A model generated the notes under the pieces. That model searched no databases, was not told the DNA's origin, and saw only the letters and a list, made by a program, of their open reading frames with translations. A stretch of DNA of 64,000 nucleotides. Origin: Rhodoferax sp. TH121. Its GTDB lineage: Bacteria; Pseudomonadota; Gammaproteobacteria; Burkholderiales; Burkholderiaceae_C. Positions 3,708 through 49,497 of the stretch are shown here, piece after piece. How positions within the stretch are numbered: position 1 is the stretch's first letter; each line of letters starts with the position of its first letter. The position numbers were made by a program, and so were the translations under genes. The DNA is taken from assembly GCF_002251855.1 (NCBI RefSeq), contig NZ_NOXW01000012.1, positions 1 to 64,000 on the forward strand, written 5' to 3'.

Positions 3708-3735
3708 GCTGCTTGTGAACACTGAAATTAGTGTG

Positions 3736-3768
3736 CACTACAAAGCAGTCTCGGACTGCTTTGTAGTG
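3736..3768 (+). promoter_or_regulatory. Perfect 15-bp hairpin in the rplL-rpoB spacer
   Basis: CACTACAAAGCAGTC and GACTGCTTTGTAGTG form a perfect 15-bp stem on a TCG loop, followed by TCTTCTG. A long uninterrupted duplex with no proper U tract suggests an RNase III cleavage site or an attenuator. E. coli has an RNase III site in this spacer. Confidence 0.6.
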
Positions 3769-3932
3769 TCTTCTGATTCGACTGCAGAAGATGCCTTGGT
3801 ACGGGTTGTGTGCAAGGCACAACCGTCCGCCAGTGATTGGTAGTGGCCAATCGCCAAGCCTGTTGAGAGTGGTGCTCAACGCGACAGTCGCCTAGGACCC
3901 CCAGGATTCCTCAGCCTTTGCCCGGAGATCTA

Positions 3933-8045: not shown

Positions 8046-8064
8046 TTGAAAGGGAAAGAGTCAC

Positions 8065-12291: not shown

Positions 12292-12315
12292 TCCGCTGAT
12301 GTTGCGTTAGTTCTG

Positions 12316-12353
12316 ATGCCCCAAGCATGTGTCGTGCAGCTTGGGGCATTTTT
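12316..12353 (+). terminator. Rho-independent terminator of the rpoBC operon
   Basis: ATGCCCCAAGC pairs with GCTTGGGGCAT over an 11-bp stem with a 12-nt loop, followed directly by TTTTTC. It lies 24 bp after the rpoC stop and just before the lemA-like start, so it ends the ribosomal/RNA polymerase operon. Confidence 0.9.
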
Positions 12354-12368
12354 CATGAGGGCGTCGCG

Positions 12369-12905: not shown

Positions 12906-12908
12906 TTC

Positions 12909-14234: not shown

Positions 14235-14241
14235 GGGGGCC

Positions 14242-17093: not shown

Positions 17094-17128
17094 GCGCGGA
17101 CAAAGGCATCAAAGGGACTGCGCTAACA

Positions 17129-17800: not shown

Positions 17801-17806
17801 ACTGAT

Positions 17807-17814
17807 GCTATAAT
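17807..17814 (+). promoter_or_regulatory. Extended -10 promoter of tRNA-Phe
   Basis: TGCTATAAT is an extended -10 box (TG-N-TATAAT) ending 10 bases before the mature tRNA 5' end. No good -35 box is visible, which is usual for extended -10 promoters. The TATAAT begins 8 bases after the response-regulator stop codon. Confidence 0.65.
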
Positions 17815-17824
17815 TCAAGGCTCA

Positions 17825-17900
17825 GGCCCGGTAGCTCAGTCGGTAGAGCAGAGGATTGAAAATCCTTGTGTCGGTGGTTCGATTCCGCCCCAGGCCACCA
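17825..17900 (+). tRNA. trnF: tRNA-Phe (anticodon GAA)
   Basis: A 76-nt cloverleaf with anticodon GAA in TTGAAAA, T loop TTCGATT and encoded CCA. The acceptor stem GGCCCGG pairs with CCAGGCC except for a C5-A68 mismatch, which is unusual for this tRNA. All other stems pair normally. Confidence 0.96.
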
Positions 17901-17909
17901 AACCTAAAA

Positions 17910-17940
17910 ATGGCTTCCAGCAATGGAAGCCATTTTTTTT
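17910..17940 (+). terminator. Rho-independent terminator of trnF
   Basis: ATGGCTTCCA and TGGAAGCCAT form a 10-bp stem on a GCAA tetraloop, followed by eight T residues. It sits 9 bases after the tRNA CCA end. Confidence 0.92.
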
Positions 17941-18078
17941 GCCTCGGCATTGTGCGTAGCGGCCCAGTAGTCCACTTGGGCTATTGATGGGCCCTGCAGG
18001 GCGGGGTACGCTCCTTCTTCAGAAACCCGTTGAGCGCAGGGCAGGGCGGGTTGGCAAAACAAAACGGGCTGGAGTAAC

Positions 18079-18702: not shown

Positions 18703-19722
18703 TTACCAGTCCAACAGCGTCAGCCCCACGCTCAGCACGGTGCGGCGACGGTTGTAGTCCATCAACGAATCGCCATAGCCGCTGAACAGCTCGGTATGGA
18801 AGCGCAAACTGCTGCGGTCGCTGTGGTTGCCGGCCGAGCCAATTTTATGTAGCCATCCCAGGCGGACGGAGCCGTTGCCTTCAGCTTTGAGGGAATGGCG
18901 CAGCGTCAGCGCCAGGGTGTTGTTCGGGTCCACATTCCAGGCGGCGGCCATTTCGGCACGGCCCACCATGTCCTCGATGTCCGGGTTGTCATCGCTGGCG
19001 GCATCTTCAGGCAGACGCTGCCACAGGCTGGCGTTGATGGCCACTTTGCTGCCCAGCTCCAGCCCGGCGCGGGCGATCACCCGGTTCCAGCTGCGCGAGA
19101 GCGGCAGGCTCTGGCCATTGCTCTGGTGGTTCAGACTCACGCCGCCGTAGCGCAGACGCCAGCCCGAGGGCAGGGCGGATTCAACGGGGAAGATATAGGT
19201 GAATTCGGGCTCGTGGTCGGTGGCGCGAAAGGGGCGTGACAGGTCGGCATTGAACAGCTGCCAGTACGACTGCTGGCTGTACGAGAACCACAGCGAATCA
19301 AGCCGGTTTGGGTCGCCGCCAGTCAGCAGGCCCTGGGCTACTTTGGTGCGCACCGAGAGCTGAATGCGTGTTTCAGTGGTGGTGTAGGGTTGGAAGCTTG
19401 CCGTGTGACCTGCCGCCGGTGAACTGGGTGCCGTGTTGACGCTGTCCGAGCCGATGACGGACAGGCTGATGGGCCGGTAGCCGCGGATGCCAAAGGTGCC
19501 GCAGTCGCTGGCGGGCTCCAACTCCCAGAAGCGCGACAGCGGGGTGGCGGCCGGGTTTTTGCAGCTCACCACCTCCACGGGGACTGGGGTGTTCACCGGC
19601 GCAGGGGTTGCCGCCAGCGGTTGGTTGCTGGCCATCGCTTCAGTACCATTTTGGGCCATAGCCCCCATGGATACTGCGCAAGCAGCTATTAAAAAAAGAG
19701 CGTTTGTGGTGCGGTACATCAT
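18703..19722 (-). CDS. pldA: Outer membrane phospholipase A (OMPLA)
   Basis: The 339-residue protein hydrolyses phospholipids in the outer leaflet of the outer membrane. The family catalytic triad is visible as His199, Ser201 and Asn213 in SLNHQSNGQSLPLSRSWNR, with the upstream strand QQSYWQLFNADLSRPFRATDHEPE also matching OMPLA. The C-terminus ends in an outer-membrane signature (VGLTLLDW). Residues 1-23 are the signal peptide, ending AMA, and residues about 7-30 are encoded by a copy of the dispersed repeat described below. The start overlaps the helicase stop by four bases (ATGA). Confidence 0.93.
   Translation of the reverse strand: MMYRTTNALFLIAACAVSMGAMAQNGTEAMASNQPLAATPAPVNTPVPVEVVSCKNPAATPLSRFWELEPASDCGTFGIRGYRPISLSVIGSDSVNTAPSSPAAGHTASFQPYTTTETRIQLSVRTKVAQGLLTGGDPNRLDSLWFSYSQQSYWQLFNADLSRPFRATDHEPEFTYIFPVESALPSGWRLRYGGVSLNHQSNGQSLPLSRSWNRVIARAGLELGSKVAINASLWQRLPEDAASDDNPDIEDMVGRAEMAAAWNVDPNNTLALTLRHSLKAEGNGSVRLGWLHKIGSAGNHSDRSSLRFHTELFSGYGDSLMDYNRRRTVLSVGLTLLDW
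19642..19705 (-). repeat. Dispersed 65-bp repeat, copy in pldA signal peptide
   Basis: Read on the minus strand it has the shared core TTAATAGCTGCTTGCGCAGT followed by ATCCATGGGGGCTATGGCC. It is in frame in pldA and encodes ALFLIAACAVSMGAMAQ, the hydrophobic core and cleavage site of the signal peptide. Confidence 0.8.
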
Positions 19723-22987: not shown

Positions 22988-23055
22988 TGCTATTGATTTG
23001 GTAGCTGCTTGCGCATAATCCATGGGCTCTAGGGTCTGGTTTGGCTTGAAATTTT
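22988..23055 (+). repeat. Dispersed 65-bp repeat, intergenic copy
   Basis: TGCTATTGATTTGGTAGCTG is followed by CTTGCGCATAATCCATGGGC, then TCTAGGGTCTGGTTTGGC and TTGAAATTTT. It begins just after the AEC transporter stop codon. The signal-peptide reading frame has a TAA here, so this copy is not coding. It is the most complete copy in the window and serves as the reference. Confidence 0.8.
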
Positions 23056-37293: not shown

Positions 37294-37962
37294 CTACGAG
37301 TACGTCACCCAGTCTGTGTAGGCTGCGTCGTCCAGATGCGGCAGCGTGTTGTAGGTCACCAGCATGTGGCGCTTGGGCGTGTAGGCCAGCTCGGTGATGG
37401 AGCTGTTGCGGATGCGCAGGTTCAGCTCAATCGTCGTCTCGGGTGTGGTGCCCAGGATGTGCCCCACGGCGGTGGAAATGGGGCCGCCGCTGGTGACGAT
37501 CAGCACATTGCCCGTGTGCCGCTGGCGCACATGGTCGAGTGCGCTGGTCACGCCTTCCACAAACGCGCCGTAACTCGGCATGCCCTGCGGGCTCACCACC
37601 CCATTCATCCACTGCGTCAGGCCGTCGCGCAGCAGGCGGAAGTGGTGGCGGTACATCTCGGGCGTATCCGCTTTCTCCAGCGGAGCGGGGTGAATGGCGT
37701 GGATCACCGCTGCACTGTCGTACTCGTTGAGTCCCGGCCATTCCAGCGCCTCATGCGTGAGGCCCGCACCCTTGGCGATGCCCGCCCACGTCTGCGCGTG
37801 GCGCTTGAGCGTGCCAGTGATCACCGCCTCGAACTGCAGCCCTTTGTGGGCAAAGTACTCTCCCAGCCGCACGCTCTGCTGGTGGCCGAGCTCACTCAGT
37901 TTGTCGTAATCCTCAGCCCCGAAAGAAGCCTGCCCGTGCCGCACCAGATAGAGATTTCCCAT
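37294..37962 (-). CDS. Histidine phosphatase family protein
   Basis: The 222-residue cytoplasmic protein of the phosphoglycerate-mutase-like superfamily begins MGNLYLVRHGQASFGAEDYD, with RHG carrying the phospho-accepting histidine. A second conserved region is NVLIVTSGGPISTAVG (Ser/Gly in place of the usual SHG). Arg residues of the catalytic pocket are present (GTLKRHAQT). Substrate unknown. Confidence 0.85.
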   Translation of the reverse strand: MGNLYLVRHGQASFGAEDYDKLSELGHQQSVRLGEYFAHKGLQFEAVITGTLKRHAQTWAGIAKGAGLTHEALEWPGLNEYDSAAVIHAIHPAPLEKADTPEMYRHHFRLLRDGLTQWMNGVVSPQGMPSYGAFVEGVTSALDHVRQRHTGNVLIVTSGGPISTAVGHILGTTPETTIELNLRIRNSSITELAYTPKRHMLVTYNTLPHLDDAAYTDWVTYS

Positions 37963-38005
37963 GGCGTAGATTTAAGCCGAATTGGCACTTGGCGCTTGTT
38001 AAATG

Positions 38006-38036
38006 TGCGACAGCAGCTATGAAATTAGGAGCGCAC
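38006..38036 (-). repeat. Dispersed repeat, short copy upstream of the phosphatase
   Basis: On the minus strand, TGCGCTCCTAATTTCATAGC, then TGCTGTCGCA. It keeps only the first half of the repeat and lies in the 119-bp gap between the phosphatase start and the LysE stop. Confidence 0.55.
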
Positions 38037-38081
38037 TTCAAAGCGTCCGAATATCGGGGGGAGGAAACTGGCTTGCGAGGT

Positions 38082-38720
38082 TCATGTTCCCGTACGCTGT
38101 TGCGTCAAGAGTTTGACCGCCAGAGCCCCTAGCACCAGACCCATGACATAGCGCTGAATGGCGAGCCACAAGCGATGCTGCGCGAACCAGCTTGCCATGG
38201 CTGCCGCGGAGAGGGTGACCATCAAATTGACGCTGGAGCCGATGAAGACTTGGGTAAAGCCCAGCACCAAGCTTTGCACGAACACCGAACCTGACTCAGG
38301 GGCAATGAACTGGGGCAAGACAGAGAGGTAGAAAACCGCCACTTTCGGGTTCAGGGCGCTGGTGAGAAAACCCATGACAAACAGCTTGTGGGGTGGTTCG
38401 GCCGGCAGGTCGTTGGGTTCGAAGGGAGAACGAGCTCCGGGGCGTACCGCTTGCCACGCCAGCCAGGCTAAATACAGAGCCCCGGCTAATTTCAACAATT
38501 CGTAGCCCATGGGCACTGCCATGAAAAGAGCGGTGAGGCCGACAGAAGCACACAGCATGTGCACCGAAAAGCCCAGAACCACGCCACACCACGACATGAC
38601 ACCCGCCCGGCGCCCTTGGCACAAGGAGCGCGAGATGAGATAAATCATGTTGGGCCCGGGTGTGATCGCCATCAGCAAGGCTGCGGCAGCAAAGATCAGA
38701 AGCTGTTGAGTGGCAATCAT
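38082..38720 (-). CDS. LysE-family amino-acid exporter (1)
   Basis: The 212-residue membrane protein has six predicted TM segments. The LysE/RhtB signature ITPGPNMIYLISRSLCQGRRAG is at the N-terminus, and LTSALNPKVAVFYLSVLPQF follows the third helix. It is the last of eleven close-set minus-strand genes; the gap to the dehydratase gene upstream is 48 bp. Substrate cannot be told from sequence. Confidence 0.88.
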   Translation of the reverse strand: MIATQQLLIFAAAALLMAITPGPNMIYLISRSLCQGRRAGVMSWCGVVLGFSVHMLCASVGLTALFMAVPMGYELLKLAGALYLAWLAWQAVRPGARSPFEPNDLPAEPPHKLFVMGFLTSALNPKVAVFYLSVLPQFIAPESGSVFVQSLVLGFTQVFIGSSVNLMVTLSAAAMASWFAQHRLWLAIQRYVMGLVLGALAVKLLTQQRTGT

Positions 38721-38768
38721 GGTGCAGTGAATGGGGACGAGGGATTGGTGATGGCTTCTTGCGAAAAA

Positions 38769-39740
38769 CTAGCCGCGTAGCACTTCGGCAAATACCGCCG
38801 AGTCCACATTTCCCCCGCACAAGGTGATCCCCACCGTTTGCCCTTGCAAACTGGCGCGTTCTTGCATCGCGGCGGCAAAGCTCGCAGCCCCCGCGCCTTC
38901 GGCCACGTTGTGGGTGCAGGCGAAGATGTTGCGCATGGCTTGGGCGACTTCGTTGTCGGTCACTTGCACGATGTGATCGATGGCGCCCATCAATATCTCT
39001 AGGGCTTCAGGGTCGGCGACGCGGCAGGCCATGCCGTCGGCCAGTTGGGTGGTCACGGGCGCTTCCACCACCTTGCCGGCTGCGAATGAATCGGCATAGG
39101 TGGTGGCGTGTGCGCTCACCACGCCGACGATGCGGGCCTGGTGGCCCAGCGCGCGTTTGGCGGCCACGGCGCTGCAGGCGCCTGAGCCCTGGCCGATGGG
39201 CACGTAGATCACGTCCAACTCCGGCGCGGCCTTGAGCAGCTCCCACCAGTAGGTGGCCACGCCGCGCAGCAGGTCGGGATGGAAGCTGGGCACCATGTGG
39301 GCGCCACGGTCTTGGGCCAATTGGATGGCGAACTCGCGGCTCTCTTGAAAGTCGGTGCCGTGTTCGATGAGGGTGACGCCCAGTGCGCGCATGGCGGCGT
39401 TCTTTTCTACCGAGTTGCCGTGCGGGACCACGATGGTGCAGGGCACGCCGTGCGCCCGTGCGGCCCAGCCGATGCTCTGGCCGTGGTTGCCGCGCGTGGC
39501 GCTGATAACCTCGGCGGGCAACGCACCGCGTTGGGCCAGTTGGTCAAAGTAGGTCAGGCCGCCGCGGATTTTGAAAGCGCCCACCGGCGTGTGGTTTTCG
39601 TGCTTGACCCAGCAGGTGGCGCCCAGCAGGCTGGAGAGCTGGCCCCAGCGGTACTGCGGCGTAGGGCCGAATTCGCGGTACACCACCTGGGCCGCAGCTT
39701 CGATGTCTTGCAAGGTGGGGAGTAGGGCGTTGGCAGTCAT
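38769..39740 (-). CDS. PLP-dependent threonine dehydratase-like enzyme
   Basis: The 323-residue fold-type II PLP enzyme has Schiff-base Lys57 in PVGAFKIRGG, the phosphate-substrate loop ATRGNHGQSIGWAARA, the PLP-phosphate-binding QGSGACSAVAAK and C-terminal CGGNVDS. The family covers threonine/serine dehydratases, hydroxyectoine EutB and racemases; the N-loop reads TRGNHGQ where catabolic enzymes have SSGNHAQ, so the substrate may differ. It lies between two LysE exporters, 25 bp downstream of one. Confidence 0.85.
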   Translation of the reverse strand: MTANALLPTLQDIEAAAQVVYREFGPTPQYRWGQLSSLLGATCWVKHENHTPVGAFKIRGGLTYFDQLAQRGALPAEVISATRGNHGQSIGWAARAHGVPCTIVVPHGNSVEKNAAMRALGVTLIEHGTDFQESREFAIQLAQDRGAHMVPSFHPDLLRGVATYWWELLKAAPELDVIYVPIGQGSGACSAVAAKRALGHQARIVGVVSAHATTYADSFAAGKVVEAPVTTQLADGMACRVADPEALEILMGAIDHIVQVTDNEVAQAMRNIFACTHNVAEGAGAASFAAAMQERASLQGQTVGITLCGGNVDSAVFAEVLRG

Positions 39741-39765
39741 GGTGGGTCCTGAAGCAGTGTGAAAT

Positions 39766-40428
39766 TCAATGTGCGTGGGTGCTGGTGCGCAGCAGCTGCA
39801 GACCGGCTATGCCGAACACGGCGGCCAGCAAGCCTTCCAGCCCGCGGCGGGCGCGGGCATAGACGCGGCGTGCGGCAGGGGTAGAAAACGCCAGCGCATA
39901 GCCGCCGAAGATGGCCACCCCCATGACCATGCAGCCACCCACCACCACCCAGGCCAGGTGGGGCGAGGCGCCGGCCGGGATGCCCACCGTGACCGTGGCC
40001 AGCCAGCTCAAAACGGCTTTGGGGTTGGTGAGGTGCATGGCCAAACCACGCACATACAGGCTGCGCGCATCCACCGCCTGCGGTGTGCCCGCTGCGGCCG
40101 CAGCTTTGGGCTGCATGGCCGCGCGGCCCGACTTGAGGGCCAGCCACAGCAAATACAAACCGCACAGCACTTTCATGGCGATGAGCCCGGCCCCGAAGCT
40201 GGCCAGCAGTTGCGAAATGCCCAGTGCCGCCAATACGCCCCAGAACCACGAGCCGCTCAAAATCCCTAGCGTCAGCCACAGCGCGGGGCGGCGTCCGGCG
40301 TTCATGGCCATGCCCATGATGGCCATGTTGCTCGGGCCGGGGCTGGCGGTGCCGATCAAATAGGTGGTCCAAGCCAGCGCGAGTTGCGCGGCCATGGGGG
40401 CGTGCAGCCACGCATCCTGCGGCGCCAT
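39766..40428 (-). CDS. LysE-family amino-acid exporter (2)
   Basis: The 220-residue membrane protein has the signature TASPGPSNMAIMGMAMNAGRR and the middle motif LTNPKAVLSWLATVTVGIP. Six TM segments are predicted. The chosen ATG overlaps the phzF-1 stop (TGATG); a GTG one codon upstream is possible. Its insert between helices 3 and 4 (QPKAAAAAGTPQAVDARS) is longer than in the other LysE proteins here. Confidence 0.88.
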   Translation of the reverse strand: MAPQDAWLHAPMAAQLALAWTTYLIGTASPGPSNMAIMGMAMNAGRRPALWLTLGILSGSWFWGVLAALGISQLLASFGAGLIAMKVLCGLYLLWLALKSGRAAMQPKAAAAAGTPQAVDARSLYVRGLAMHLTNPKAVLSWLATVTVGIPAGASPHLAWVVVGGCMVMGVAIFGGYALAFSTPAARRVYARARRGLEGLLAAVFGIAGLQLLRTSTHAH

Positions 40429-41366
40429 CACAGCGTGACCTTTCCTTCAATGCACGTAACCGAATCACCACCCACCCACACCTGGCCCTGCGCGTCTTGC
40501 TCAATGTAGACGCGGCCGGCACGGCCTATGCAGGTGCCCTGGGCGGCCACGTAGCGGGCGGGGGCGATGCCGTCTGCAATCAGCCACTGGGCCAAGCTGG
40601 CGTTGAAGCTGCCGGTGACCGGGTCTTCCAGCACGCCGATGTCGGGTGCGAAAAAGCGCACCTCCACGGTGGGCGTGTCGTCATCCGCGGTGCTGGCGCC
40701 AGCGTCGCGGCTACCGAAGGCCCGCGCCTCGCGGTTGCTGCGCACTATCAAATCAGGAGCTGCTGGCGCACTTTCTATGCCGGCTACGCCCACACCAGGC
40801 ACCAAACCCTTGAGGGCGGCGGCGTCGGGCTGCAGGCTGAGCACGGTGTCCATGCTGTCCAGCAGCAGGCCCAGCCAGGTGGGGCCGTTGTTGAGCCACT
40901 GGGCTGCCAGAATCTGTTGCGGCTGCAGGCCCAGGGCCGCGGCCACACGGGCGATCAGCGCGGCATCGGGCGTGGTGCGTTGTAGGCTGGGCGCGGCAAA
41001 GGCCAGGCGCGTGCCGTCGCGGCGCAGAGACACCAAACCTTTGGCGCACTCTTGCACGATAGTTCCAGCCGCCTTGGGCGTGCCGCCCGCCTGCAGCCAG
41101 GCGTGGCAGCTGCCCAGCGTGGGGTGGCCGGCAAACGGCAGCTCATCGGCGGGGGTGAAGATGCGCACCCGGTAGTCCGCGCCCTGGGCCGCCGCTGCGG
41201 GGCTGGGGGGCAGCAAAAAAGTGGTCTCGCTCAGGTTGGTCCAGCGGGCGAAAGCCTGCATCTCTTCGTCGCTGAGGCCACTGCCGTCCATCACCACGCC
41301 CAAGGCGTTGCCGAGGTAGGGGATGCGGGTGAAGACGTCGACTTGTTGGTAGGCGCGTGGGGTCAT
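40428..41366 (-). CDS. PhzF-family isomerase/epimerase-fold protein (1)
   Basis: The 312-residue protein has two diaminopimelate-epimerase-like domains. PhzF signatures are ARWTNLSETTFLLPP (catalytic Glu in NLSET; about residues 35-49), LPFAGHPTLGSCHAWL, and DPVTGSFNASLAQWL. PhzF isomerises DHHA in phenazine synthesis, but most family members have unknown substrates. A reverse-oriented copy of the dispersed repeat encodes GIESAPAAPDLIVRS and a further insert makes it 22 residues longer than the paralogue. The gap to phzF-2 is 16 bp. Confidence 0.85.
   Translation of the reverse strand: MTPRAYQQVDVFTRIPYLGNALGVVMDGSGLSDEEMQAFARWTNLSETTFLLPPSPAAAAQGADYRVRIFTPADELPFAGHPTLGSCHAWLQAGGTPKAAGTIVQECAKGLVSLRRDGTRLAFAAPSLQRTTPDAALIARVAAALGLQPQQILAAQWLNNGPTWLGLLLDSMDTVLSLQPDAAALKGLVPGVGVAGIESAPAAPDLIVRSNREARAFGSRDAGASTADDDTPTVEVRFFAPDIGVLEDPVTGSFNASLAQWLIADGIAPARYVAAQGTCIGRAGRVYIEQDAQGQVWVGGDSVTCIEGKVTL
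40742..40800 (+). repeat. Dispersed 65-bp repeat, copy in phzF-1
   Basis: GCACTATCAAATCAGGAGCT, then GCTGGCGCACTTTCTATGCC and GGCTACGCC. It lies antisense to the gene and in frame, at the position equivalent to the copy in phzF-2. Confidence 0.72.
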
Positions 41367-41382
41367 GGGCTGTCTCGTCGGG

Positions 41383-42255
41383 TTACAGGGTGGCTGTGCC
41401 GCGTATGCAGGTGACCGAGTCACCGCCCACCCAGACCTGACCGCTGGCATCCTGGCGGATGTGGATGCGGCCATCGCGCTGGATGCAGGTGCCCTGGTGC
41501 ACCACGTAGCTGGCGGGCATGTATTCGTCCGCAATCAGCCACTGGGCCAGGCTGGCGTTCAGGCTGCCGGTGACCGGGTCTTCATTGATGCCGTTGAGTG
41601 CGGCAAAGGCACGTACTTCCAGTTTGCTTGCTATGGAATCAGGAGCTGCTCGCGCAGTATCTACGGCGGCTACGCCTACTTTGACGCCCAAGTTCTTGAG
41701 GGCGGGGTGGTCAGGCTGCAGTTGCAGCACAGACTGCATGTCGTCCACCAGCACGCCCAGCCAGTCGGTGCCGTTGCTCAGGTGCTGGGCCGAGATGATT
41801 TGCTTGGCCGTCAGGCCCAGCGCATGGGCCACCTGCGCCAGCAAGCCAGGGCTGGGGTTTTTGCGCTGGAACGAAGGGGTTGCAAAGGCCAGGCGCGTGC
41901 CATCGCGGCAGATTTGTACCAGGCCTTTGGCGCACTCTTGCACGATGCGGTCTTTGGCTCGGGGCGTGCCACCGGCCTCCAGCCAGGCGTGGCAGCTGCC
42001 CAATGTGGGGTGGCCGGCAAAGGGCAGCTCGCCGCCGGGGGTGAAGATGCGCACCCGGTAGTCCGCACCCTGCGCCGCCGCCTCGGGGCTGGGCGGCAGC
42101 AAAAACGTGGTCTCGCTCAAATTGGTCCATCGTGCAAAGCCCTGCATCTGCGCATCGTTCAGGCCACTACCGTCGAGTACGACGGCGAGCGGGTTACCCA
42201 GATACGGCTGGGCAGTGAACACATCGACTTGGGCGAAGGGGCGGAGCTGGGGCAC
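41383..42255 (-). CDS. PhzF-family isomerase/epimerase-fold protein (2)
   Basis: The 290-residue paralogue of the next gene downstream has the same signatures (ARWTNLSETTFLLPPSP, LPFAGHPTLGSCHAWLEAGG, DPVTGSLNASLAQWL). A reverse-oriented repeat copy encodes DTARAAPDSIASK. The tight tandem arrangement and equivalent repeat positions indicate a local duplication. The gap to the GST gene upstream is 24 bp. Confidence 0.86.
   Translation of the reverse strand: MPQLRPFAQVDVFTAQPYLGNPLAVVLDGSGLNDAQMQGFARWTNLSETTFLLPPSPEAAAQGADYRVRIFTPGGELPFAGHPTLGSCHAWLEAGGTPRAKDRIVQECAKGLVQICRDGTRLAFATPSFQRKNPSPGLLAQVAHALGLTAKQIISAQHLSNGTDWLGVLVDDMQSVLQLQPDHPALKNLGVKVGVAAVDTARAAPDSIASKLEVRAFAALNGINEDPVTGSLNASLAQWLIADEYMPASYVVHQGTCIQRDGRIHIRQDASGQVWVGGDSVTCIRGTATL
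41628..41688 (+). repeat. Dispersed 65-bp repeat, copy in phzF-2
   Basis: TTGCTATGGAATCAGGAGCT, then GCTCGCGCAGTATCTACGGC and GGCTACGCC. It is antisense to the gene and in frame; closest to the reference copy in its first 45 bases. Confidence 0.78.
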
Positions 42256-42279
42256 GAGGAGCCTTTCTAGGGTTGAGCG

Positions 42280-42903
42280 TTATGAAATAGGGAGGTCGAG
42301 CACACCGCGTGTAGCGGGGCGCGCCAAGATGGCCGCAAACCAGCGCTCCAGGTGCGGCCAATCAGGCCGGGGCTGGGGCAGGGCGAACCAGCGGTGCACA
42401 TCGCAGGCCACGGGAATGTCGGCCATGCTGAAGTGCTCGCCGCACATCCAGGTGCGGGTGGCCAAATGGTCGTTGAGCTGGGCCATGGCCGGCTCGGTGG
42501 CGGCGGTGGAGCGGGCAATCACCGCCGGGTCGCGCTTGTCAGCCGGCGTGCGGAACCATTGCAGAAAAGCGCCACCGCTGTCGCGGTTCAGGGTGGTCTG
42601 TTGCCAGTCCATCCAGCGCTCGGCGTCAAAACGTTGCGCCAAGTCTTCGGGATAAAGCTCGGCATTCCCATACTTTGCGCAGAGGTAGCGCACGATGGCG
42701 TTGCTCTCCCAGAGCGTGAAGTCGCCGTCCTGCAGCGTGGGCACCAGCGCATTGGGGTTCATGGACAGGTATTCGGGGGTTTTGACCACCCCGAAGGCCA
42801 TGCCCGCATCGCTGCGGGTAAAGGCGACGCCGGTTTCTTGCGCTGCCCACACCACCTTGCGTACGTTGAGCGAACTCAGGCGCCCCCAGATATGGACCGT
42901 CAT
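42280..42903 (-). CDS. Glutathione S-transferase family protein
   Basis: The 207-residue protein has a thioredoxin-like N-terminal domain (HIWGRLSSLNVRKVVWAAQE, then NPNALVPTLQDGDFTLWESNAIVRYL with the ES glutathione contact) and an all-helical C-terminal domain ending FAAILARPATRG. A fairly typical bacterial GST; substrate unknown. Its ATG lies 2 bases after the aminotransferase stop, so it is cotranscribed. Confidence 0.9.
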   Translation of the reverse strand: MTVHIWGRLSSLNVRKVVWAAQETGVAFTRSDAGMAFGVVKTPEYLSMNPNALVPTLQDGDFTLWESNAIVRYLCAKYGNAELYPEDLAQRFDAERWMDWQQTTLNRDSGGAFLQWFRTPADKRDPAVIARSTAATEPAMAQLNDHLATRTWMCGEHFSMADIPVACDVHRWFALPQPRPDWPHLERWFAAILARPATRGVLDLPIS

Positions 42904-42905
42904 GT

Positions 42906-44132
42906 TCAGCTCCTTTGGGCGTGAATGGCTTCGGCCAGTGCGGCCACACCGCGGTGGATCTCTTCCACACTGGGGGTCACAAAGCTCAGGCGCATGGATC
43001 GGGCATCGGCATTGCCGGCGTAGAACGGTGCACCGGGCACAAAGGCCACGCCCTTGTCCACGGCATGGGGCAGCAGGTCCACGGCGTTCATGCCAGCAGG
43101 CAAACGTGCCCACAAGAACATGCCACCGGCCGGGGTGTTCCAGGTGAAGGTGCTGTCGGCATTGGCAGAGTCCGGGCCTTGCGATTCGGGGAAGTGCTTG
43201 GCCAGTGCTTCTAACATCGCGTCGCGCTGAGCTTTGTAGAGGCTGCGGATGGTGGGCACATGGCGGTCCAGGAAACCGTTTTGCATCACCTCATAAATCA
43301 GGCGCTGGTTGAAGCCGGGGCTGTGCAAATCGGCTGCTTGCTTGGCTTGCAAGAGCTTGGGGTACACCGCCTTGGGTGCGACGATAAAGCCCATGCGCAG
43401 GCCGGGCGCCAGCACCTTGGAGAAGGAACCTAGGTAAATGCCGCCCTCGGGGTTGCGGGCAGTCAGCGGCGCGGGGGGCGCCTGGTCAAACCACAGGTCG
43501 CCATAGGGGTTGTCTTCCATGATGGGCAGGCCACTGCGGGCGGCCTCCGCGCTCAGGGCCGCGCGGCGCGCTTCAGTCATGCTGCGGCCGGTGGGGTTCT
43601 GGAAGTTGGGCAGCACATACAAAAAGCGTGCGTCGGCCGACTTGGCAGCCAGGTCGGCAATGTTCACGCCTTCGTCGTCGCTGGCCACGCTCACCACGTT
43701 CGGCTCCATGGGGGTGAATGCCATCACCGCGCCCAGGTAGGTGGGGGATTCGACCAGCACTTTGCTTTCCTTGTCGATCAAGATTTTGGCGACCAGGTCC
43801 AAGCCCTGCTGCGAGCCGGTGGTGATGAGCACCTGCGCGGGGTCTACGTTCCAGGTCACGCCAGCGGCGGCGCTTTGGGCTTTGAGCTGCGCAGCAACCA
43901 GTTCGCGCAGGGGGCCGTAGCCCTCCGAAGCGGCGTATTGCAGGGCGCCTGCGGGGTCGTCCTTGAGCACCTTGGCGCAGGCGGCTTCAAACTCGGCCAC
44001 GGGGAAGGTCTTGCTGCTGGGCAGGCCGCCGGCAAAGCTGATGATGCCGGGCTTCTCGGTCACTTTGAGGATCTCGCGGATCACCGAGGGGTTCATCTTG
44101 GCGGCACGTTCGGCCAGGGTCCATTGCGTCAT
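42906..44132 (-). CDS. Fold-type I PLP aminotransferase (2-aminoadipate type)
   Basis: The 408-residue enzyme resembles LysN/KAT aminotransferases: SFAGGLPSSKTFP near the start, QYAASEGYGPLRE, LITTGSQQGLDL, LPNFQNPTGRSM, and the PLP lysine in YLGSFSKVLAPGLRMGF. A C-terminal RLSFVTPSVEEI completes the domain. It would transfer the amino group of a bulky or branched 2-amino acid. GGAG lies 8 bases before the ATG. It sits between the GST and the cupin genes. Confidence 0.88.
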   Translation of the reverse strand: MTQWTLAERAAKMNPSVIREILKVTEKPGIISFAGGLPSSKTFPVAEFEAACAKVLKDDPAGALQYAASEGYGPLRELVAAQLKAQSAAAGVTWNVDPAQVLITTGSQQGLDLVAKILIDKESKVLVESPTYLGAVMAFTPMEPNVVSVASDDEGVNIADLAAKSADARFLYVLPNFQNPTGRSMTEARRAALSAEAARSGLPIMEDNPYGDLWFDQAPPAPLTARNPEGGIYLGSFSKVLAPGLRMGFIVAPKAVYPKLLQAKQAADLHSPGFNQRLIYEVMQNGFLDRHVPTIRSLYKAQRDAMLEALAKHFPESQGPDSANADSTFTWNTPAGGMFLWARLPAGMNAVDLLPHAVDKGVAFVPGAPFYAGNADARSMRLSFVTPSVEEIHRGVAALAEAIHAQRS

Positions 44133-44174
44133 AAAAGCTCCAGAGAAATTCGGGGTCGTCTTGTCAGTGTTCGC

Positions 44175-44504
44175 TCAGTCCACCACAAACAGGGTGGCAC
44201 CCAGGGGCGCGGTTGAGCGGTGGGGTTCTGAATTGTCGGCCACTTGGTAGCTCATGCCGGGGCGCAGGGTGAAGCTGCGGCCGTCTTCCAGCTCGGTGTG
44301 CAGCTCGCCCTGCAGGCACAGCAGGATGTGGCCTTTGACACACCAGTGGTCCGACACGTAGCCCGGCGTGTACTCCACCATGCGCACCCGCACACAGCCA
44401 AAGTGTTGCGTGCGCCACAGCGCGCGGCCAGACTGGGCGCTTTTTTCTTCGGCGGGGATGGTGGACCAGTCGGTGGTGCCAAAGGGAATGTTGTGCAGTT
44501 CCAT
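44175..44504 (-). CDS. DHCW-motif cupin protein
   Basis: At 109 residues it is a single cupin barrel with the motif SDHWCVKGHILLCLQGELHTELEDGR and LRPGMSYQVADNSEPHRS. The DHxC.KGH arrangement marks a small family that often lies next to amino-acid transporters; biochemical role unknown. Gap of 42 bp to the aminotransferase, 10 bp to the LysE gene. Confidence 0.8.
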   Translation of the reverse strand: MELHNIPFGTTDWSTIPAEEKSAQSGRALWRTQHFGCVRVRMVEYTPGYVSDHWCVKGHILLCLQGELHTELEDGRSFTLRPGMSYQVADNSEPHRSTAPLGATLFVVD

Positions 44505-44514
44505 TACGCGGCTT

Positions 44515-45117
44515 TCAGCTTCTCAGCATGGGGTAGAGCGAGGCCACCAGGGCCAGTGCCATGGTGATGTTGAAGATGCGCAGGCGCCGCGGGTCTTGCA
44601 GCAGGCCGCGCATGGCCTGGCCAAAGCCCAGCCACACCGCCGAGCAGGGGCTGCCCAGCACCAGCGACATCAGCGCCAGCAGCAGCACCTGGGGCAGAGT
44701 AGCGTCGGGCGGCAGGTAGGCGCTCATGGCGGTGACGATCATGACCCAGGCCTTGGGGTTGATCCATTGGAAGGCGGCTGCGCCCCAAAAGCCCAGCGGC
44801 TGTGCGGCGGGCGCATCGGGGTCGGCACTGGCGGGGCGGGCCGTGGCCAGCTTCCAGGCCAGCCACAGCAGGTAGGCCGCGCCGCCCCAGCGCATCAGCT
44901 GGTAGAGCGCCGGAAACCGGTCCAGCACCGCATGCAGGCCCAGACCCACGCACAGCAGCATCACAGTAAAGCCGATTTGCACCCCCAGCAGGTGTGGCAG
45001 TGAGCGGCGCACGCCAAAGTTCACCCCCGATGCCATCAGCATGGTGTTGTTGGGCCCTGGTGTGACGGAGCTCACGATGAGGAACAAGGCCGCGGCGATC
45101 AACAGGTCGTAGGTCAT
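44515..45117 (-). CDS. LysE-family amino-acid exporter (3)
   Basis: The 200-residue protein has six TM segments. The signature SVTPGPNNTMLMASGVNFGVRRS is at the N-terminus and QWINPKAWVMIVTAMSAY in the middle. It starts inside the EamA stop (ATGA), so translation is coupled to the gene upstream. Confidence 0.9.
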   Translation of the reverse strand: MTYDLLIAAALFLIVSSVTPGPNNTMLMASGVNFGVRRSLPHLLGVQIGFTVMLLCVGLGLHAVLDRFPALYQLMRWGGAAYLLWLAWKLATARPASADPDAPAAQPLGFWGAAAFQWINPKAWVMIVTAMSAYLPPDATLPQVLLLALMSLVLGSPCSAVWLGFGQAMRGLLQDPRRLRIFNITMALALVASLYPMLRS

Positions 45118-46037
45118 GCAACGGCTGCTTTCACAGGGGTTTGCACCGGCATGCGCCGGCCGATGAAGACCGTGGCAATCACCGCCACGCCAAAGCCCAC
45201 GGTCACTGCGTCCAGCCGCTCACCGAGCAGCGGCACGGCAAACAGCATGCCCAGGAAAGGCTGCAGCAGCTGCACCTGGCTCACGCGCACCGTGCCGCCC
45301 AGGGCCAGGCCCTTGTACCAGGCAAAAAAGCCCAGCCACATGGAAAACACCGACACATAGGCAAACGCCACCCAGGCGCTGGCGGGCAGCGCCACGCTGG
45401 GGAATTGCCACACCGCCAGCGGCAGGTTGATGGGCAGCGCAATCACCAGCGCCCAGCAAATCACATGCTCGGCCCGCATGCGCTGCGAGAGCCGCCCGCC
45501 ATGGCCGTAGCCCACGGCCGCACAGGCCATGGCCAGCAGCAAGAGCACATCGGCCATTTGCAGCGACAGGCCACTGTGGCCCGAGCGCAGCACAGCAAAC
45601 GCCACCACCAGCGCCGTGCCGGCCAGTGCGCAAACCCAAAAGCCGGTAGACGGCCGCTGCCGGTTCAAAAAGGCGCCCACCACCGCAGTGGCCAGTGGCA
45701 GCACGCCCACCATCACGCTGGCGTGCACCGCCTCCACATGGCGCATGGCGATGGAGGTGAAGATGGGAAACCCAAACACCACCCCCAGTGCCACCAGCAC
45801 CAGCGGGCCCCAGGTGTCGCGCGGCGGCAGCGGCGCCTTGCTCCACCACAGCAACAGTGCGGAGAGCAGGCCTGCCACCACGGCGCGGCCCACCGCGATG
45901 AACAGGCCCGACATCAGCGGCGCCTCGGGCGTGCCCACGGCCAGGCGGGTCATGGGCAGGGTCATGGCAAACATGGTGATGCCCAATAGGCCCAGCCACA
46001 GGCCCTTTTTGAGGTTGGCAGTGTGTGAAGTGTTCAT
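45114..46037 (-). CDS. EamA/DMT-family transporter
   Basis: The 307-residue protein has ten TM helices in two EamA repeats (KKGLWLGLLGITMFAMTLPMTRLAV, then VCWAL-type second half with WLGFFAWYKGLALGGTVRVSQVQLLQPF). Drug/metabolite transporters of this kind often export amino acids or nucleosides. It overlaps both neighbouring LysE genes by four bases. Confidence 0.9.
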   Translation of the reverse strand: MNTSHTANLKKGLWLGLLGITMFAMTLPMTRLAVGTPEAPLMSGLFIAVGRAVVAGLLSALLLWWSKAPLPPRDTWGPLVLVALGVVFGFPIFTSIAMRHVEAVHASVMVGVLPLATAVVGAFLNRQRPSTGFWVCALAGTALVVAFAVLRSGHSGLSLQMADVLLLLAMACAAVGYGHGGRLSQRMRAEHVICWALVIALPINLPLAVWQFPSVALPASAWVAFAYVSVFSMWLGFFAWYKGLALGGTVRVSQVQLLQPFLGMLFAVPLLGERLDAVTVGFGVAVIATVFIGRRMPVQTPVKAAVA

Positions 46038-46669
46038 AACGATCCCATCCAGGCGGCCGTGGCCACCAACACGGCAGCCATGCCGCGGTTGAACCAGCGC
46101 AGCCGCTGCGCTGTGGCCACACCGGCCACCACCGGGCCGCTGAGCCAGTCGCGTAAGAGCGAGCCCATGGCGGCATAGAGCAGGTTGCTGAAGAAACCAA
46201 AGGCCAGCATCAGCGGCAGCGTGATGGCAAAACGCGCCAGCACATCCTCGCGCCCGGCCAGCCAGCCGGCGGTCACCGTCAGGCCCAGCATCCAGGCCTT
46301 GATATTGAGAAACTGCAGCGCCACGCCCTGCCAAAAGCTCACGTTGAGGCGGCTCGCACCCGCTTCCCCCAGGCTGCTGGCGCGGGCCAGCTTCACGGCC
46401 AGCCACAGCAGGTAGGTTATGCCCAGCCACTGGATGGCGCTGCGCAGCAGCGGCAAGGCCACCACCAGCGCGCCCAGGCCACCGGCACACAGCGTGAACA
46501 GCAGGCCCCAGCCCAGTGGCACGGCCAGCACAAAGTGCAGCGCGCCGCGCAGCCCCCGGTTGGCCGCCAGTGCGGTGGACAGCGTGGTGTTGGGCCCTGG
46601 GGTGAAGCTGGCCGCGGTGGAGAGCAGCAACAGCGCGGTGAATTCGGCAGCGGTAAACGTGGTGAACAT
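46034..46669 (-). CDS. LysE-family amino-acid exporter (4)
   Basis: The 211-residue protein has six TM segments; signature ASFTPGPNTTLSTALAANRGLRGA and middle motif LQFLNIKAWMLGLTVTAGWLAG. It is the first gene of the eleven-gene run and starts 100 bp from the divergent MocR gene, so it is likely under that regulator. I chose the ATG encoding MFTTFTAAEF; an earlier in-frame ATG would use up most of the regulatory spacer. Confidence 0.9.
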   Translation of the reverse strand: MFTTFTAAEFTALLLLSTAASFTPGPNTTLSTALAANRGLRGALHFVLAVPLGWGLLFTLCAGGLGALVVALPLLRSAIQWLGITYLLWLAVKLARASSLGEAGASRLNVSFWQGVALQFLNIKAWMLGLTVTAGWLAGREDVLARFAITLPLMLAFGFFSNLLYAAMGSLLRDWLSGPVVAGVATAQRLRWFNRGMAAVLVATAAWMGSL

Positions 46670-46768
46670 GCGATTCACTGTACTTTGAAAAACAACACAC
46701 TTGCAGTACAGTTTGTGCAAACAGAATCACAACTGTATTGCTGGCACGGCCAGCACAGAGGACACCCC
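46670..46768. promoter_or_regulatory. Divergent control region of the lysE run and the MocR gene
   Basis: The AT-rich 99-bp spacer holds ACTGTAC (46677-46683), its inverse GTACAGT (46706-46712), and AACTGTA (46731-46737). Three related half-sites, spaced 29 and 25 bases centre to centre, look like a MocR/GntR operator. No clear -35/-10 pair could be fixed. Confidence 0.55.
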
Positions 46769-48217
46769 ATGCTCATGAAAACTGCGGCCCAAAGCCTGGC
46801 CGAACAACTGGCGGCGCTGTTTGCCCAGCGCATCCGCGACCGCCTGCTGGCGCCGGGTGCGCGCCTGCCCTCGGTGCGCCTGTGTGCGCAGCAGCAGGGG
46901 GTGAGCCCGTCCACCGTGGTGGGCGCCTACGACCAGCTGCTGGCCCAAGGCCTGGTGGAGGCGCGCAAAAACCGCGGCTTTTATGTGCGCGAATTGCCCT
47001 CCGTGGCCGTGGGTGGTGCGCAAGCAGCTATTGATTCAGGAGCACACGGCGTTGCCAACCTCATGCTCACCGTGCCCCAGCGCTACGCGCCACTCAACGC
47101 CACGGCGCTGATCCGCGGCATGTTCAAGGGCGTGAGCAACAAGCCCCAGCCCGGCATGGGCGTGCTGCCCAAGGAATGGCTGCAGTCCACCTTTTTGGCC
47201 ACGGCGGTACGGCGCAGCTGCAGTGTGGAGGCGCTCAACGCGTTCTCATTGCAGTACGGCGAGCCCGCAGGTGACATCGGCTTGCGCCGCGCGTTGTCCA
47301 CCAAGCTGGCGGGCCTGTCGGTACACGCCGCGCCCGAGCAAATCATCACCACCGTGGGTGCCACCAACGCGCTGGACGTGGTGAGTCGCACGCTGCTGCG
47401 CGCGGGTGATTACGTGATGGTGGAAGAGCCCGGCTGGGCCATCGAGTTTGCGCGGCTCGACTCGCTGGGCATGCGCATCCTGCCGGTGCCGCGCCGCGCC
47501 GACGGGCCCGACCTGGAGGTGATGGCGCGCTACTGCGAGGCGCACCGCCCCAAGCTGTTTGTGAGTGTGAGTGTGTTTCACAACCCCACCGGGTTTTGCC
47601 TCTCGCCCAGCAGCGCCTACCGCATCCTGCAACTGGCCAACCAGCACGACTTTCACATTGTTGAAGACGACACCTACAGCCACTTTGCCCCCGAACACGC
47701 CACCCGCCTGTGCGCGCTGGACGGCCTGCAGCGCACCATCTACGTGGGCGGCTTTGCCAAAATCTTGGCGCCCAACTGGCGCGTGGGCTACCTGGCCGCG
47801 CCCAAAGACCTGGCCGAGCGCCTGCTGGACACCAAGCTGCTGTCCACCCTGACCACGCCTGCGCTGCTGGAGAAAGCGCTGGCCTGGTGCATCGACCAAG
47901 GCCAGCTGCGCCGCCATGCCGAGCGCATCCGCACCCAGCTCGATGCGGCACGGGCGCGCAGCGTGAAGCTGGCGCTGGCGCATGGCTGCACGTTTGCGTC
48001 CGACCCCGTGGGCCTGTTTGGCTGGGTGGAAACCGGGGTGGACACCGACGCCCTGAGCCAGCGCATGCTGGACGAAGGCTACCTGCTGGCGCCCGGCGCC
48101 CTGTTCCACGCCCAGCGCACACCCAGCAGCCTGATGCGCATCAACTTTGCCAGCACGCAAGAGGCGCAGTTCTGGAAAACCTTTGCGCGCCTGCGCGACG
48201 AACAGGTGGGCGCATGA
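46769..48217 (+). CDS. MocR-family GntR/aminotransferase regulator
   Basis: In this 482-residue protein an N-terminal GntR winged helix (LPSVRLCAQQQGVSPSTVVGAYDQLLAQGLVEARKNRGFYV, about 35-75) is joined by a linker to a fold-type I aminotransferase-like domain with PLP lysine in GGFAKILAPNWRVGY and HNPTGFCLS. MocR proteins sense amino acids or PLP derivatives and usually control a divergent gene; here that is the LysE run. The linker is partly encoded by a reverse repeat copy (AQAAIDSGAHG). GAGG lies 7 bases before the ATG. Confidence 0.92.
   Translation: MLMKTAAQSLAEQLAALFAQRIRDRLLAPGARLPSVRLCAQQQGVSPSTVVGAYDQLLAQGLVEARKNRGFYVRELPSVAVGGAQAAIDSGAHGVANLMLTVPQRYAPLNATALIRGMFKGVSNKPQPGMGVLPKEWLQSTFLATAVRRSCSVEALNAFSLQYGEPAGDIGLRRALSTKLAGLSVHAAPEQIITTVGATNALDVVSRTLLRAGDYVMVEEPGWAIEFARLDSLGMRILPVPRRADGPDLEVMARYCEAHRPKLFVSVSVFHNPTGFCLSPSSAYRILQLANQHDFHIVEDDTYSHFAPEHATRLCALDGLQRTIYVGGFAKILAPNWRVGYLAAPKDLAERLLDTKLLSTLTTPALLEKALAWCIDQGQLRRHAERIRTQLDAARARSVKLALAHGCTFASDPVGLFGWVETGVDTDALSQRMLDEGYLLAPGALFHAQRTPSSLMRINFASTQEAQFWKTFARLRDEQVGA
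47017..47044 (-). repeat. Dispersed repeat, half copy in the MocR gene
   Basis: On the minus strand, TGCTCCTGAATCAATAGCTG, then CTTGCGCA. Only the first half of the element. In frame, antisense to the gene, in the interdomain linker. Confidence 0.68.
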
Positions 48218-48579
48218 GCCGGCCCTGGTTGCTGGTGGTGGCCTTGGGCCTGGCAGGTGCTGCACACGCGGGAGGCGCCGAGCCCGTGCAAACACGCTGC
48301 GGCTGGTGGGACAACCCCAGCCCCGGCAACGCCTGGCTCATCGACCGCGATGGCGCGTGGGAGGTGGCCATCCAGGGCGGGCACCAGGCCGAGGGCGACT
48401 GGCCCGAGATTCCTGCGCGGCAGAAAGTGCGCGGCAACGGCAGCTATGGCTACGGCTGCGCCTGCCTGCGCGTGACCGTTAACCCCACAACCCGGCAGGT
48501 GCTGAAGATCGTCAGCGCCCAGGCGCGCCCTCTGCAGCAGTGCCGCGCCGACCCAGCGCTGGGCAAGCCGCCCGGCTAA
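48214..48579 (+). CDS. DUF4087 secreted protein
   Basis: The 121-residue protein has a signal peptide (MSRPWLLVVALGLAGAAHA) and a short Cys-rich mature part with RCGWWDNPSPGNAWLIDRDGAWEVAIQGG and YGCACLRVTV, which fit DUF4087. Function unknown. Its start overlaps the MocR stop by four bases (ATGA), so the two are read together. Confidence 0.78.
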   Translation: MSRPWLLVVALGLAGAAHAGGAEPVQTRCGWWDNPSPGNAWLIDRDGAWEVAIQGGHQAEGDWPEIPARQKVRGNGSYGYGCACLRVTVNPTTRQVLKIVSAQARPLQQCRADPALGKPPG

Positions 48580-49430: not shown

Positions 49431-49497
49431 TGCTATGTATTTCATAGCTGTTTGCGCAATAACCACGGCTTGCAAGGCCTAAAAGGTTTGAAATTCA
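49431..49497 (+). repeat. Dispersed 65-bp repeat, intergenic copy before the HDOD gene
   Basis: TGCTATGTATTTCATAGCTG, then TTTGCGCAATAACCACGGCT and GGTTTGAAATTC. It fills the gap between the acetyltransferase stop and the HDOD stop, so it sits where convergent transcripts end. Confidence 0.75.

What the first reader, a model, noticed from the sequence alone, without database searches (positions are those of the whole stretch)
38082..48217. Eleven-gene exporter and PLP-enzyme run facing a MocR regulator: candidate new amino-acid pathway
Four LysE proteins, one EamA protein, a threonine dehydratase-like enzyme, two PhzF proteins, a GST, an aminotransferase and a DHCW cupin follow each other with gaps of at most 48 bp and several ATGA overlaps. 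A MocR regulator sits divergent at the head. The set suggests sensing, modification and efflux of a toxic or unusual amino acid or a derivative. I know of no described operon with this exact content, but cannot search.
Basis: partly seen in the sequence, partly recalled or inferred. Interest (0 to 1): 0.72.

Follow-up and report, generated by a model that had tools for sequence, protein, structure and literature searches.

The report
Amino-acid efflux and damage-control operon
A freshwater bacterium carries a long, conserved run of amino-acid exporter and enzyme genes facing a vitamin-B6-dependent switch gene, which most likely protects the cell from an excess or harmful small amino acid; it is a relative of a known kind of gene set rather than a new kind.

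Summary
In detail: eleven minus-strand genes (38082-46669) with gaps of -4 to +48 bp face a divergent MocR gene (46769-48217). The run is not local: in 100 of 103 same-family genomes having both genes, the aminotransferase and PhzF lie within 8 kb (chance ~0.4). An operator-like motif lies in the MocR-divergent gap in 71 of 79 loci by a relaxed pattern (64 by a fuller one) and once in the window's own 4 Mb genome. EamA, aminotransferase and PhzF form the core; LysE, GST, the PRK06110 dehydratase, VOC, racemase, DHCW cupin and AlaX-like genes vary. Outside the family, some homologous MocR-headed runs add RidA or an AlaX-like gene, and one (L306) carries dehydratase, LysE, aminotransferase, GST, EamA and PhzF together. 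I read it as a MocR regulon for efflux and PLP-enzyme damage control against a small, perhaps serine/threonine-class amino acid; regulation, transport and substrate are inferred, not shown. Suvorova & Rodionov 2016 described such regulons in general terms, so it is a new member of a known kind. No relative of 78 has four LysE genes. Separately, a dispersed repeat sits inside coding genes of this genome.

The parts
46769..48217 (+). MocR-type regulator (wHTH plus aminotransferase-fold), divergent
   Evidence: Match along most of its length to the PdxR/MocR profiles, below the equivalog cut-offs; the lysine and arginine motifs of solved aminotransferases align (residue roles recalled)
46697..46738 (-). 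Putative MocR operator: ATACAG, 21 bp, CTGTACTG, 4 bp, TGT
   Evidence: Only match of the pattern in the 3.99 Mb genome, reversed-pattern control 0; in 71 of 79 MocR-divergent gaps by a relaxed pattern, 64 of 79 by a fuller one. Binding not tested
46034..46669 (-). LysE-family exporter 1
   Evidence: PF01810 49.8 bits vs cut-off 25.6; nearest NCBIfam profile cysteine/O-acetylserine transporter, below cut-off
45114..46037 (-). EamA (DMT superfamily) transporter
   Evidence: PF00892 95.7 bits; an EamA homologue in 73 of 78 relative runs
44515..45117 (-). LysE-family exporter 2
   Evidence: PF01810 66.9 bits
44175..44504 (-). DHCW-motif cupin
   Evidence: NF038084 167 bits vs cut-off 70; in 8 of 78 relative runs
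42906..44132 (-). Aminotransferase of the 2-aminoadipate / kynurenine aminotransferase II type
   Evidence: PF00155 86.8 bits; best solved relative is a 2-aminoadipate transaminase, E 5.1e-87
42280..42903 (-). Glutathione S-transferase
   Evidence: PF02798 and PF13410 over cut-off; in 36 of 78 relative runs
41383..42255 (-). PhzF-family isomerase a (GTG start)
   Evidence: PF02567 198.7 bits, TIGR00654 over cut-off; Glu, His and Asp motif positions kept
40428..41366 (-). PhzF-family isomerase b
   Evidence: PF02567 184.9 bits, TIGR00654 over cut-off; Glu, His and Asp kept
39766..40431 (-). LysE-family exporter 3 (GTG start)
   Evidence: PF01810 95.5 bits
38769..39740 (-). PLP-dependent dehydratase, PRK06110 'threonine dehydratase'
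   Evidence: NF004771 532.3 bits vs cut-off 317
38082..38720 (-). LysE-family exporter 4
   Evidence: PF01810 113.9 bits in the six-frame search; nearest NCBIfam profiles 2A76 (homoserine/threonine) and LeuE, below cut-off; not called in the runs of the closest relatives L091-L101

Best explanation
The run is one MocR-controlled operon for amino-acid efflux and PLP-enzyme damage control. MocR, holding PLP, senses an amino acid (or its PLP adduct) and switches the divergent operon through the conserved operator. EamA and LysE proteins export the amino acid. The aminotransferase, the PRK06110 dehydratase and the PhzF isomerases convert it or reactive enamine/imine derivatives of it; GST and the cupin deal with side products. 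The likeliest ligand class is small hydroxy or beta-substituted amino acids (serine, threonine, homoserine, cysteine type; about 0.3 on its own). Shown: gene families, packing, synteny, operator-motif conservation, retained catalytic motifs. Inferred: single transcript, MocR binding, direction of transport, ligand, and each enzyme's reaction.
For: Packing and divergent MocR. Aminotransferase and PhzF within 8 kb in 100 of 103 genomes having both. Among 78 MocR-headed relative runs: EamA 73, at least one LysE 52, PhzF 74, PALP labelled Tdh 37 (6 of these only 26-30% identical), GST 36, VOC 25, amino-acid racemase 15, AlaX-like 5. Motif in 71 of 79 gaps relaxed and 64 of 79 fuller; in 388 strand-readings of other divergent gaps 2 and 1, the one fuller hit being in L069, a locus with a MocR homologue that was not counted as headed; shuffles 0.05 and 0 per set. 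Unique in the own genome. Outside the family, of 12 MocR-homologue loci 8 have EamA, 7 LysE, 5 the aminotransferase, 5 RidA, 1 AlaX-like, 1 PRK06110 dehydratase. L306 carries dehydratase, LysE, aminotransferase, GST, EamA and PhzF behind a MocR homologue. RidA lies in the same MocR-headed run as the dehydratase in L240 and L289, which fits the published link between serine/threonine dehydratase, 2-aminoacrylate and RidA (start of abstract of PMC12188003 in the listing). AlaX edits Ser-tRNA(Ala) (recalled).
Against: No transcript, binding or transport data. The exporters score below every equivalog cut-off, so nearest-profile names are not substrates. AlaX-like genes (185 and 184 bits vs AlaXM cut-off 300) are in only 5 of 78 runs and the dehydratase in about half, so neither fixes the substrate. 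26 of 78 runs have no called LysE (two of these, L044 and L089, hold uncalled LysE-coding DNA). The window's run has no RidA, AlaX or racemase. 3 of the 12 outside MocR-homologue loci (L245-L247) have none of the partners, and none of the 12 gaps fits the fuller operator pattern, 6 of 12 only its direct-repeat half. Of 30 outside aminotransferase loci 22 are not MocR-headed. Loci were chosen by AT or PhzF, so those frequencies are inflated.
Confidence: 0.55

Rival explanations
1. A PdxQ-type regulon for PLP (vitamin B6) homeostasis, with the transporters moving B6 vitamers or PLP adducts.
For: PdxQ regulons are described with DMT or LysE transporters, PLP-dependent aminotransferases, a GloA-family lyase and a PhzF-related protein (PMC5320631 passages). 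The MocR's best NCBIfam profile is PdxR, below cut-off.
Against: The PLP-metabolic oxidases (pdxO/pdxO2/pdxH) named for PdxQ regulons are not among the 12 genes here. The operator pattern occurs nowhere else in the genome. No such oxidase is among the 25 of 55 Pfam families shown for 39 unassigned genes of relatives (the other 30 families were not shown).
Confidence: 0.12
2. A biosynthetic and export cluster for a non-proteinogenic amino acid made by the cell, as in the gvg cluster of Pseudomonas fluorescens WH6.
For: The gvg cluster pairs a MocR-like regulator with LysE-type exporters and an aminotransferase and is needed for 4-formylaminooxyvinylglycine (PMC8067088 passages).
Against: No carbamoyl- or formyltransferase or NRPS gene is among the 12. 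The core is spread through most surveyed genomes of the family, with enzymes swapped between neighbours, unlike a strain-specific metabolite cluster.
Confidence: 0.12
3. A catabolic operon that uses an amino acid as carbon or nitrogen source, with exporters as overflow valves.
For: Aminotransferase plus dehydratase could deaminate a substrate; several MocR regulons (GABA, taurine, ectoine) serve utilisation (PMC5320631).
Against: No recognised importer and no dehydrogenase or acyl-CoA enzyme in the run. Four exporters of the LysE family plus EamA without an uptake system is the opposite of a utilisation operon.
Confidence: 0.1

Closest known systems
MocR regulons of Suvorova & Rodionov 2016, PdxQ and unassigned groups (PMC5320631; abstract, passages and part 1 of 3 of the results read)
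   Same: MocR regulator; PhzF-related, DMT and LysE transporters, PLP aminotransferases, threonine dehydratase, a GloA-family lyase and RidA proteins occur in such regulons
   Different: No pdxO/pdxH in this run; the parts read give no operon with this content; supplementary tables not readable here
gvg cluster, Pseudomonas fluorescens WH6 (PMC8067088; passages read)
   Same: MocR-like regulator, three LysE-type translocators and an aminotransferase in one cluster that makes and exports an unusual amino acid
   Different: Has carbamoyl-, formyl- and amidinotransferase genes and a class III aminotransferase; its table lists no PhzF, EamA or dehydratase
RidA / 2-aminoacrylate damage control
   Same: Outside the family some homologous runs place RidA next to the related aminotransferase, twice with a PRK06110-like dehydratase in the run (L240, L289)
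   Different: No RidA in the window's run, and none at E <= 1e-4 among 2007 predicted proteins of the window and the loci L031-L155
PhzF of phenazine biosynthesis and YddE
   Same: Family profile and motif Glu, His and Asp kept in 118 of 118 PhzF sequences aligned, the window's two included
   Different: No other phenazine gene in the run; the closest solved relatives of PhzFa are a hypothetical protein, then YddE, then PhzF

Membership tests
MocR-regulated operon | Regulator with wHTH and PLP-binding aminotransferase-like domain | tested here: met
   PdxR profile matched over residues 10-475, profile 2-447 of 448 (below equivalog cut-off); lysine and C-terminal arginine motifs align with solved aminotransferases. 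PLP binding itself untested
MocR-regulated operon | Repeat operator in the shared promoter region | tested here: met
   Motif in 71 of 79 gaps relaxed, 64 of 79 fuller; controls 2 and 1 of 388, shuffles near 0; unique in genome. Binding not tested
PdxQ regulon | PLP-metabolic oxidases (pdxO/pdxO2/pdxH) in the regulon | tested here: not met
   None among the 12 genes; no second match of the operator pattern in the genome
PRK06110 threonine dehydratase | Curated equivalog cut-off | tested here: met
   532.3 vs 317 bits; activity untested
PhzF isomerase family | Family profile and Glu/His/Asp motif positions | tested here: met
Phenazine biosynthesis | Co-located phz genes | tested here: not met
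   None among the 12 genes besides PhzF-family members
Assigned amino-acid exporters (cysteine/O-acetylserine, homoserine/threonine, LeuE, ArgO, LysE) | Score above the curated cut-off | tested here: not met
   All five transporters below the cut-offs shown
gvg-type amino-acid antimetabolite cluster | Carbamoyl- and formyltransferase genes | tested here: not met
   None among the 12 genes
Single operon | One transcript | not testable with these tools
   Packing fits; terminator-like sites in 37900-48300, both strands, 7 vs shuffle mean 8.4 sd 2.9; no promoter-like site on the operon strand

The most novel reading that the evidence does not exclude
An order-wide stress regulon against a toxic small amino acid in which PhzF-family proteins work as enamine/imine tautomerases alongside or in place of RidA, which would give the orphan PhzF/YddE family a cellular role outside phenazine synthesis. 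Strict replacement of RidA by PhzF is already weakened: both sit side by side in L294 and L300.
Probability: 0.13. Interest if true: 0.62.

Novelty: new member of a known kind. Interest (0 to 1): 0.37.

Why it matters
MocR regulators are most numerous per genome in betaproteobacteria, and 48 of the 86 groups studied in PMC5320631 had no assigned function. This run offers a defined set with a conserved candidate operator, a divergent regulator and a small core, so the inducer can be sought by an ordinary reporter screen. The linkage of PhzF to an aminotransferase, a serine/threonine-type dehydratase and, in other families, RidA gives a testable lead on what non-phenazine PhzF proteins do.

Tried and rejected
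PhzF as a strict substitute for RidA: suggested by no RidA at E <= 1e-4 in 2007 predicted proteins of the family loci (best hit E 0.046) against 5 of 12 outside loci; rejected as strict because two outside runs carry both.

A simple recent tandem duplication of PhzFa/PhzFb: on a 43-sequence tree the two copies fall in different parts of the drawing, but deep support is near zero (0.063), and my script's split into copy a and copy b mislabelled three sequences (L096_12, L098_13, L100_11), so only the drawing was used and the question is left open.

The PRK06110 dehydratase as anchor of the module: in 20 regions from other families of the order it mostly sits in other contexts; in two (L229, L230) it is divergent to a MocR-like gene.

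A first ORF-chaining attempt mis-called operons through overlong ORFs and was replaced by a dicodon caller. A first, stricter operator pattern fitted 44 of 79 gaps; most of the rest fit with one or two changes, and the relaxed patterns were set after seeing this.

Paper searches (listings only, often a capped part of the papers found) that showed no paper on this exact operon: 20 of 56 listed; 1 paper, on Bordetella pertussis macrolide resistance, naming a DHCW cupin; none found; 5; 20 of 68; 12 of 28; 8 of 206; 10 of 115. No structure prediction was run; the folds are known families. Pfam families 26-55 were not shown, so absence of a PLP oxidase in relatives is not proven.
Full report
What is there. 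The window holds eleven minus-strand genes from 46669 down to 38082 with intergenic distances -4, -4, 10, 42, 2, 24, 16, -4, 25 and 48 bp, facing a MocR gene at 46769-48217. A dicodon gene caller, trained partly on these genes, returned the same 12 and no others in the stretch. Pfam and NCBIfam confirm four LysE proteins, EamA, a DHCW cupin, a class I/II aminotransferase, a GST, two PhzF proteins and a PLP enzyme that passes the curated PRK06110 'threonine dehydratase' cut-off. The six-frame search found fourteen LysE-family places in the whole genome, four of them here.

Where it comes from. The nearest named genomes by the aminotransferase are Rhodoferax, Curvibacter and unnamed Comamonadaceae (97-98% identity).

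Is it conserved? In 150 genomes of the family (own included) PhzFb has a match in 117 and the aminotransferase in 149, the weaker ones being about 40% identical and probably paralogues. Taking aminotransferase best hits of 320 bits or more (114 other genomes) and listed PhzF places (113 of 116 other genomes), 103 genomes have both and in 100 the two lie within 8 kb; chance would give about 0.4. In G012 and G098 the two are on different contigs; in G056 they are far apart on one contig. Eleven genomes have the aminotransferase without PhzF and ten PhzF without a strong aminotransferase.

What is core and what is accessory. From 125 loci (60 chosen by PhzF, 65 by aminotransferase), 78 have a MocR-headed run besides the window, 45 from the first set and 33 from the second, with 78 different aminotransferase sequences. 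The aminotransferase is in all 78 (an anchor), EamA in 73, PhzF in 74, all three together in 69, at least one called LysE in 52, a PALP labelled Tdh in 37, GST in 36, VOC (Glyoxalase_3) in 25, an amino-acid racemase in 15, the DHCW cupin in 8, an AlaX-like gene in 5; 11 have two PhzF. Six of the 37 PALP genes are only 26-30% identical; the two PALP genes of this sort that were profiled are nearest to PRK08246, below its cut-off. Accessory labels rest on Pfam or NCBIfam for one representative per cluster. LysE genes per run are 0 in 26 (two of these hold uncalled LysE-coding DNA), 1 in 36, 2 in 11, 3 in 5 and never 4, so the window's content is unique in this sample.

Control region. The MocR-divergent gap carries ATACAG, about 21 bp, CTGTAYTG, 4 bp, TGT. 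A relaxed pattern fits 71 of 79 gaps (window included) and a fuller one 64 of 79; a stricter first pattern fitted 44. In 388 strand-readings of other divergent gaps (254 in L031-L155, 134 in L217-L248) the relaxed pattern occurs twice (L069, L246) and the fuller one once (L069, a locus that holds a MocR homologue but was not counted as headed); shuffled gaps give 0.05 and 0 per set. In the window's own genome the pattern occurs once, at this place, with zero for the reversed control. Outside the family, 6 of 12 MocR-homologue gaps carry the direct repeat TGTAYYG-N4-TGTNNYG but none fits the fuller pattern. No promoter-like site was found on the operon strand.

The regulator and enzymes. The MocR aligns with solved aminotransferases through the lysine motif and the C-terminal arginine motif (roles recalled), so it should still hold PLP and an amino acid; this is inference. 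The aminotransferase is closest in the PDB to a 2-aminoadipate transaminase, with kynurenine aminotransferase II further down. PhzFa is closest to a hypothetical protein, then YddE, then PhzF (PhzFb was not searched). The Glu, His and Asp motif positions are kept in 118 of 118 aligned PhzF sequences, the window's two included; the role of the Glu is stated in the abstract of PMC5524880 as seen in the listing, the others are recalled.

Outside the family. MocR homologues at E <= 1e-60 occur in 40 of 200 genomes of the order, own included. Of 12 loci fetched, 8 have EamA, 7 LysE, 5 the aminotransferase, 5 RidA, 2 VOC, 1 an AlaX-like gene, 1 the PRK06110 dehydratase (538 bits), none PhzF, and 3 have none of these. 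The aminotransferase subfamily is in 52 of 399 genomes of the order and 4 of 274 of the class, own included. Of 34 further regions, 30 gave an aminotransferase call: 8 are MocR-headed, 10 have RidA, 6 EamA, 5 LysE, 3 PhzF, 3 VOC, 2 the dehydratase, 2 GST, 1 an AlaX-like gene. L306 has a MocR homologue facing dehydratase, LysE, aminotransferase, GST, EamA and PhzF; Pfam confirms these six as PALP, LysE, Aminotran_1_2, GST, EamA and PhzC-PhzF. L294 and L300 carry RidA and PhzF side by side. Against the reading: 22 of the 30 are not MocR-headed, so this aminotransferase is not tied to the regulator everywhere.

How it most likely works. The recurring partners are EamA and LysE exporters, a PLP aminotransferase, a serine/threonine-type dehydratase and, in some relatives, RidA (2-aminoacrylate made from serine by IlvA accumulates without RidA: start of abstract of PMC12188003, listing), an AlaX-like protein (AlaX edits Ser- and Gly-tRNA(Ala), recalled) and an amino-acid racemase. 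Together they point to a small amino acid of the serine/threonine/homoserine/cysteine class whose excess or PLP-derived enamines harm the cell. The nearest exporter profiles (cysteine/O-acetylserine, homoserine/threonine) agree but score below their cut-offs, so they are only a hint. I give the general reading 0.55 and the serine-class substrate about 0.3.

Comparison with what is known. Suvorova & Rodionov 2016 (abstract, passages and part 1 of 3 of the results read; supplementary tables not readable) describe MocR regulons with PhzF-related proteins, DMT and LysE transporters, aminotransferases, a GloA-family lyase, threonine dehydratase and RidA, and predict a link between PhzF-like proteins and DMT transporters. 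The window's run matches that description without the PLP oxidases named for PdxQ. The gvg cluster of P. fluorescens WH6 (passages read) shows that a MocR-like regulator, LysE exporters and an aminotransferase can serve one unusual amino acid. I therefore file it as a new member of a known kind, with its particular combination and its distribution worked out here.

A side finding. A dispersed element, by eye some 55-60 bp long, with core ATAGCTGCTTGCGCA occurs 184 times at up to one mismatch in the 3.99 Mb genome against 0 for the reversed control. Of 30 of the 49 exact copies examined, 11 lie inside predicted genes; 7 of these 11 lie in the opposite orientation and the same phase and give an AQAA(I/M) peptide. 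In the operon one exact copy lies in the MocR gene after the DNA-binding part, and likely diverged copies lie in a variable segment of both PhzF genes (judged by eye). Exact cores occur in 21 of 100 genomes of the family, most abundantly here (49; next 14). The mode resembles the palindromic elements inserted in Rickettsia proteins (recalled). The one paper search made listed 10 of 147 papers, none of which by title or abstract start describes such an element in this family.

Noticed in passing
47017-47043 (MocR), 41626-41680 (PhzFa), 40740-40793 (PhzFb), 38012-38032, 49432-49458, 22989-23015, 19675-19701: Dispersed short repeat (core ATAGCTGCTTGCGCA): 184 copies at up to one mismatch genome-wide vs 0 control; of 30 exact copies examined 11 lie inside predicted genes, 7 of them in one orientation and phase giving AQAA(I/M); the PhzF copies are diverged and judged by eye.
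   Followed up: partly
37294-37962: Histidine-phosphatase-like gene downstream of the run; a homologue lies in the same-strand run in 27 of 78 MocR-headed relatives, so it may be co-transcribed or just a fixed neighbour.
   Followed up: partly
L109, L111, L112, L114, L115, L118, L145: In place of the PRK06110 dehydratase these loci have a distant PALP enzyme (26-30% identity); the two profiled (L109, L115) are nearest to PRK08246, below cut-off.
   Followed up: partly
L229:9535-11940, L230: In other families of the order the PRK06110-like dehydratase sits divergent to a MocR-like gene without the rest of the set.
   Followed up: no
1-18000: GC content is 0.53-0.59 between tRNA-Trp (50-125) and tRNA-Phe (17825-17900) against 0.58-0.67 in 18-52 kb; possibly an inserted region.
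   Followed up: no
44175-44504: The DHCW cupin family has almost no literature: one paper held both words, a Bordetella pertussis macrolide-resistance association study, seen in the listing only.
   Followed up: no
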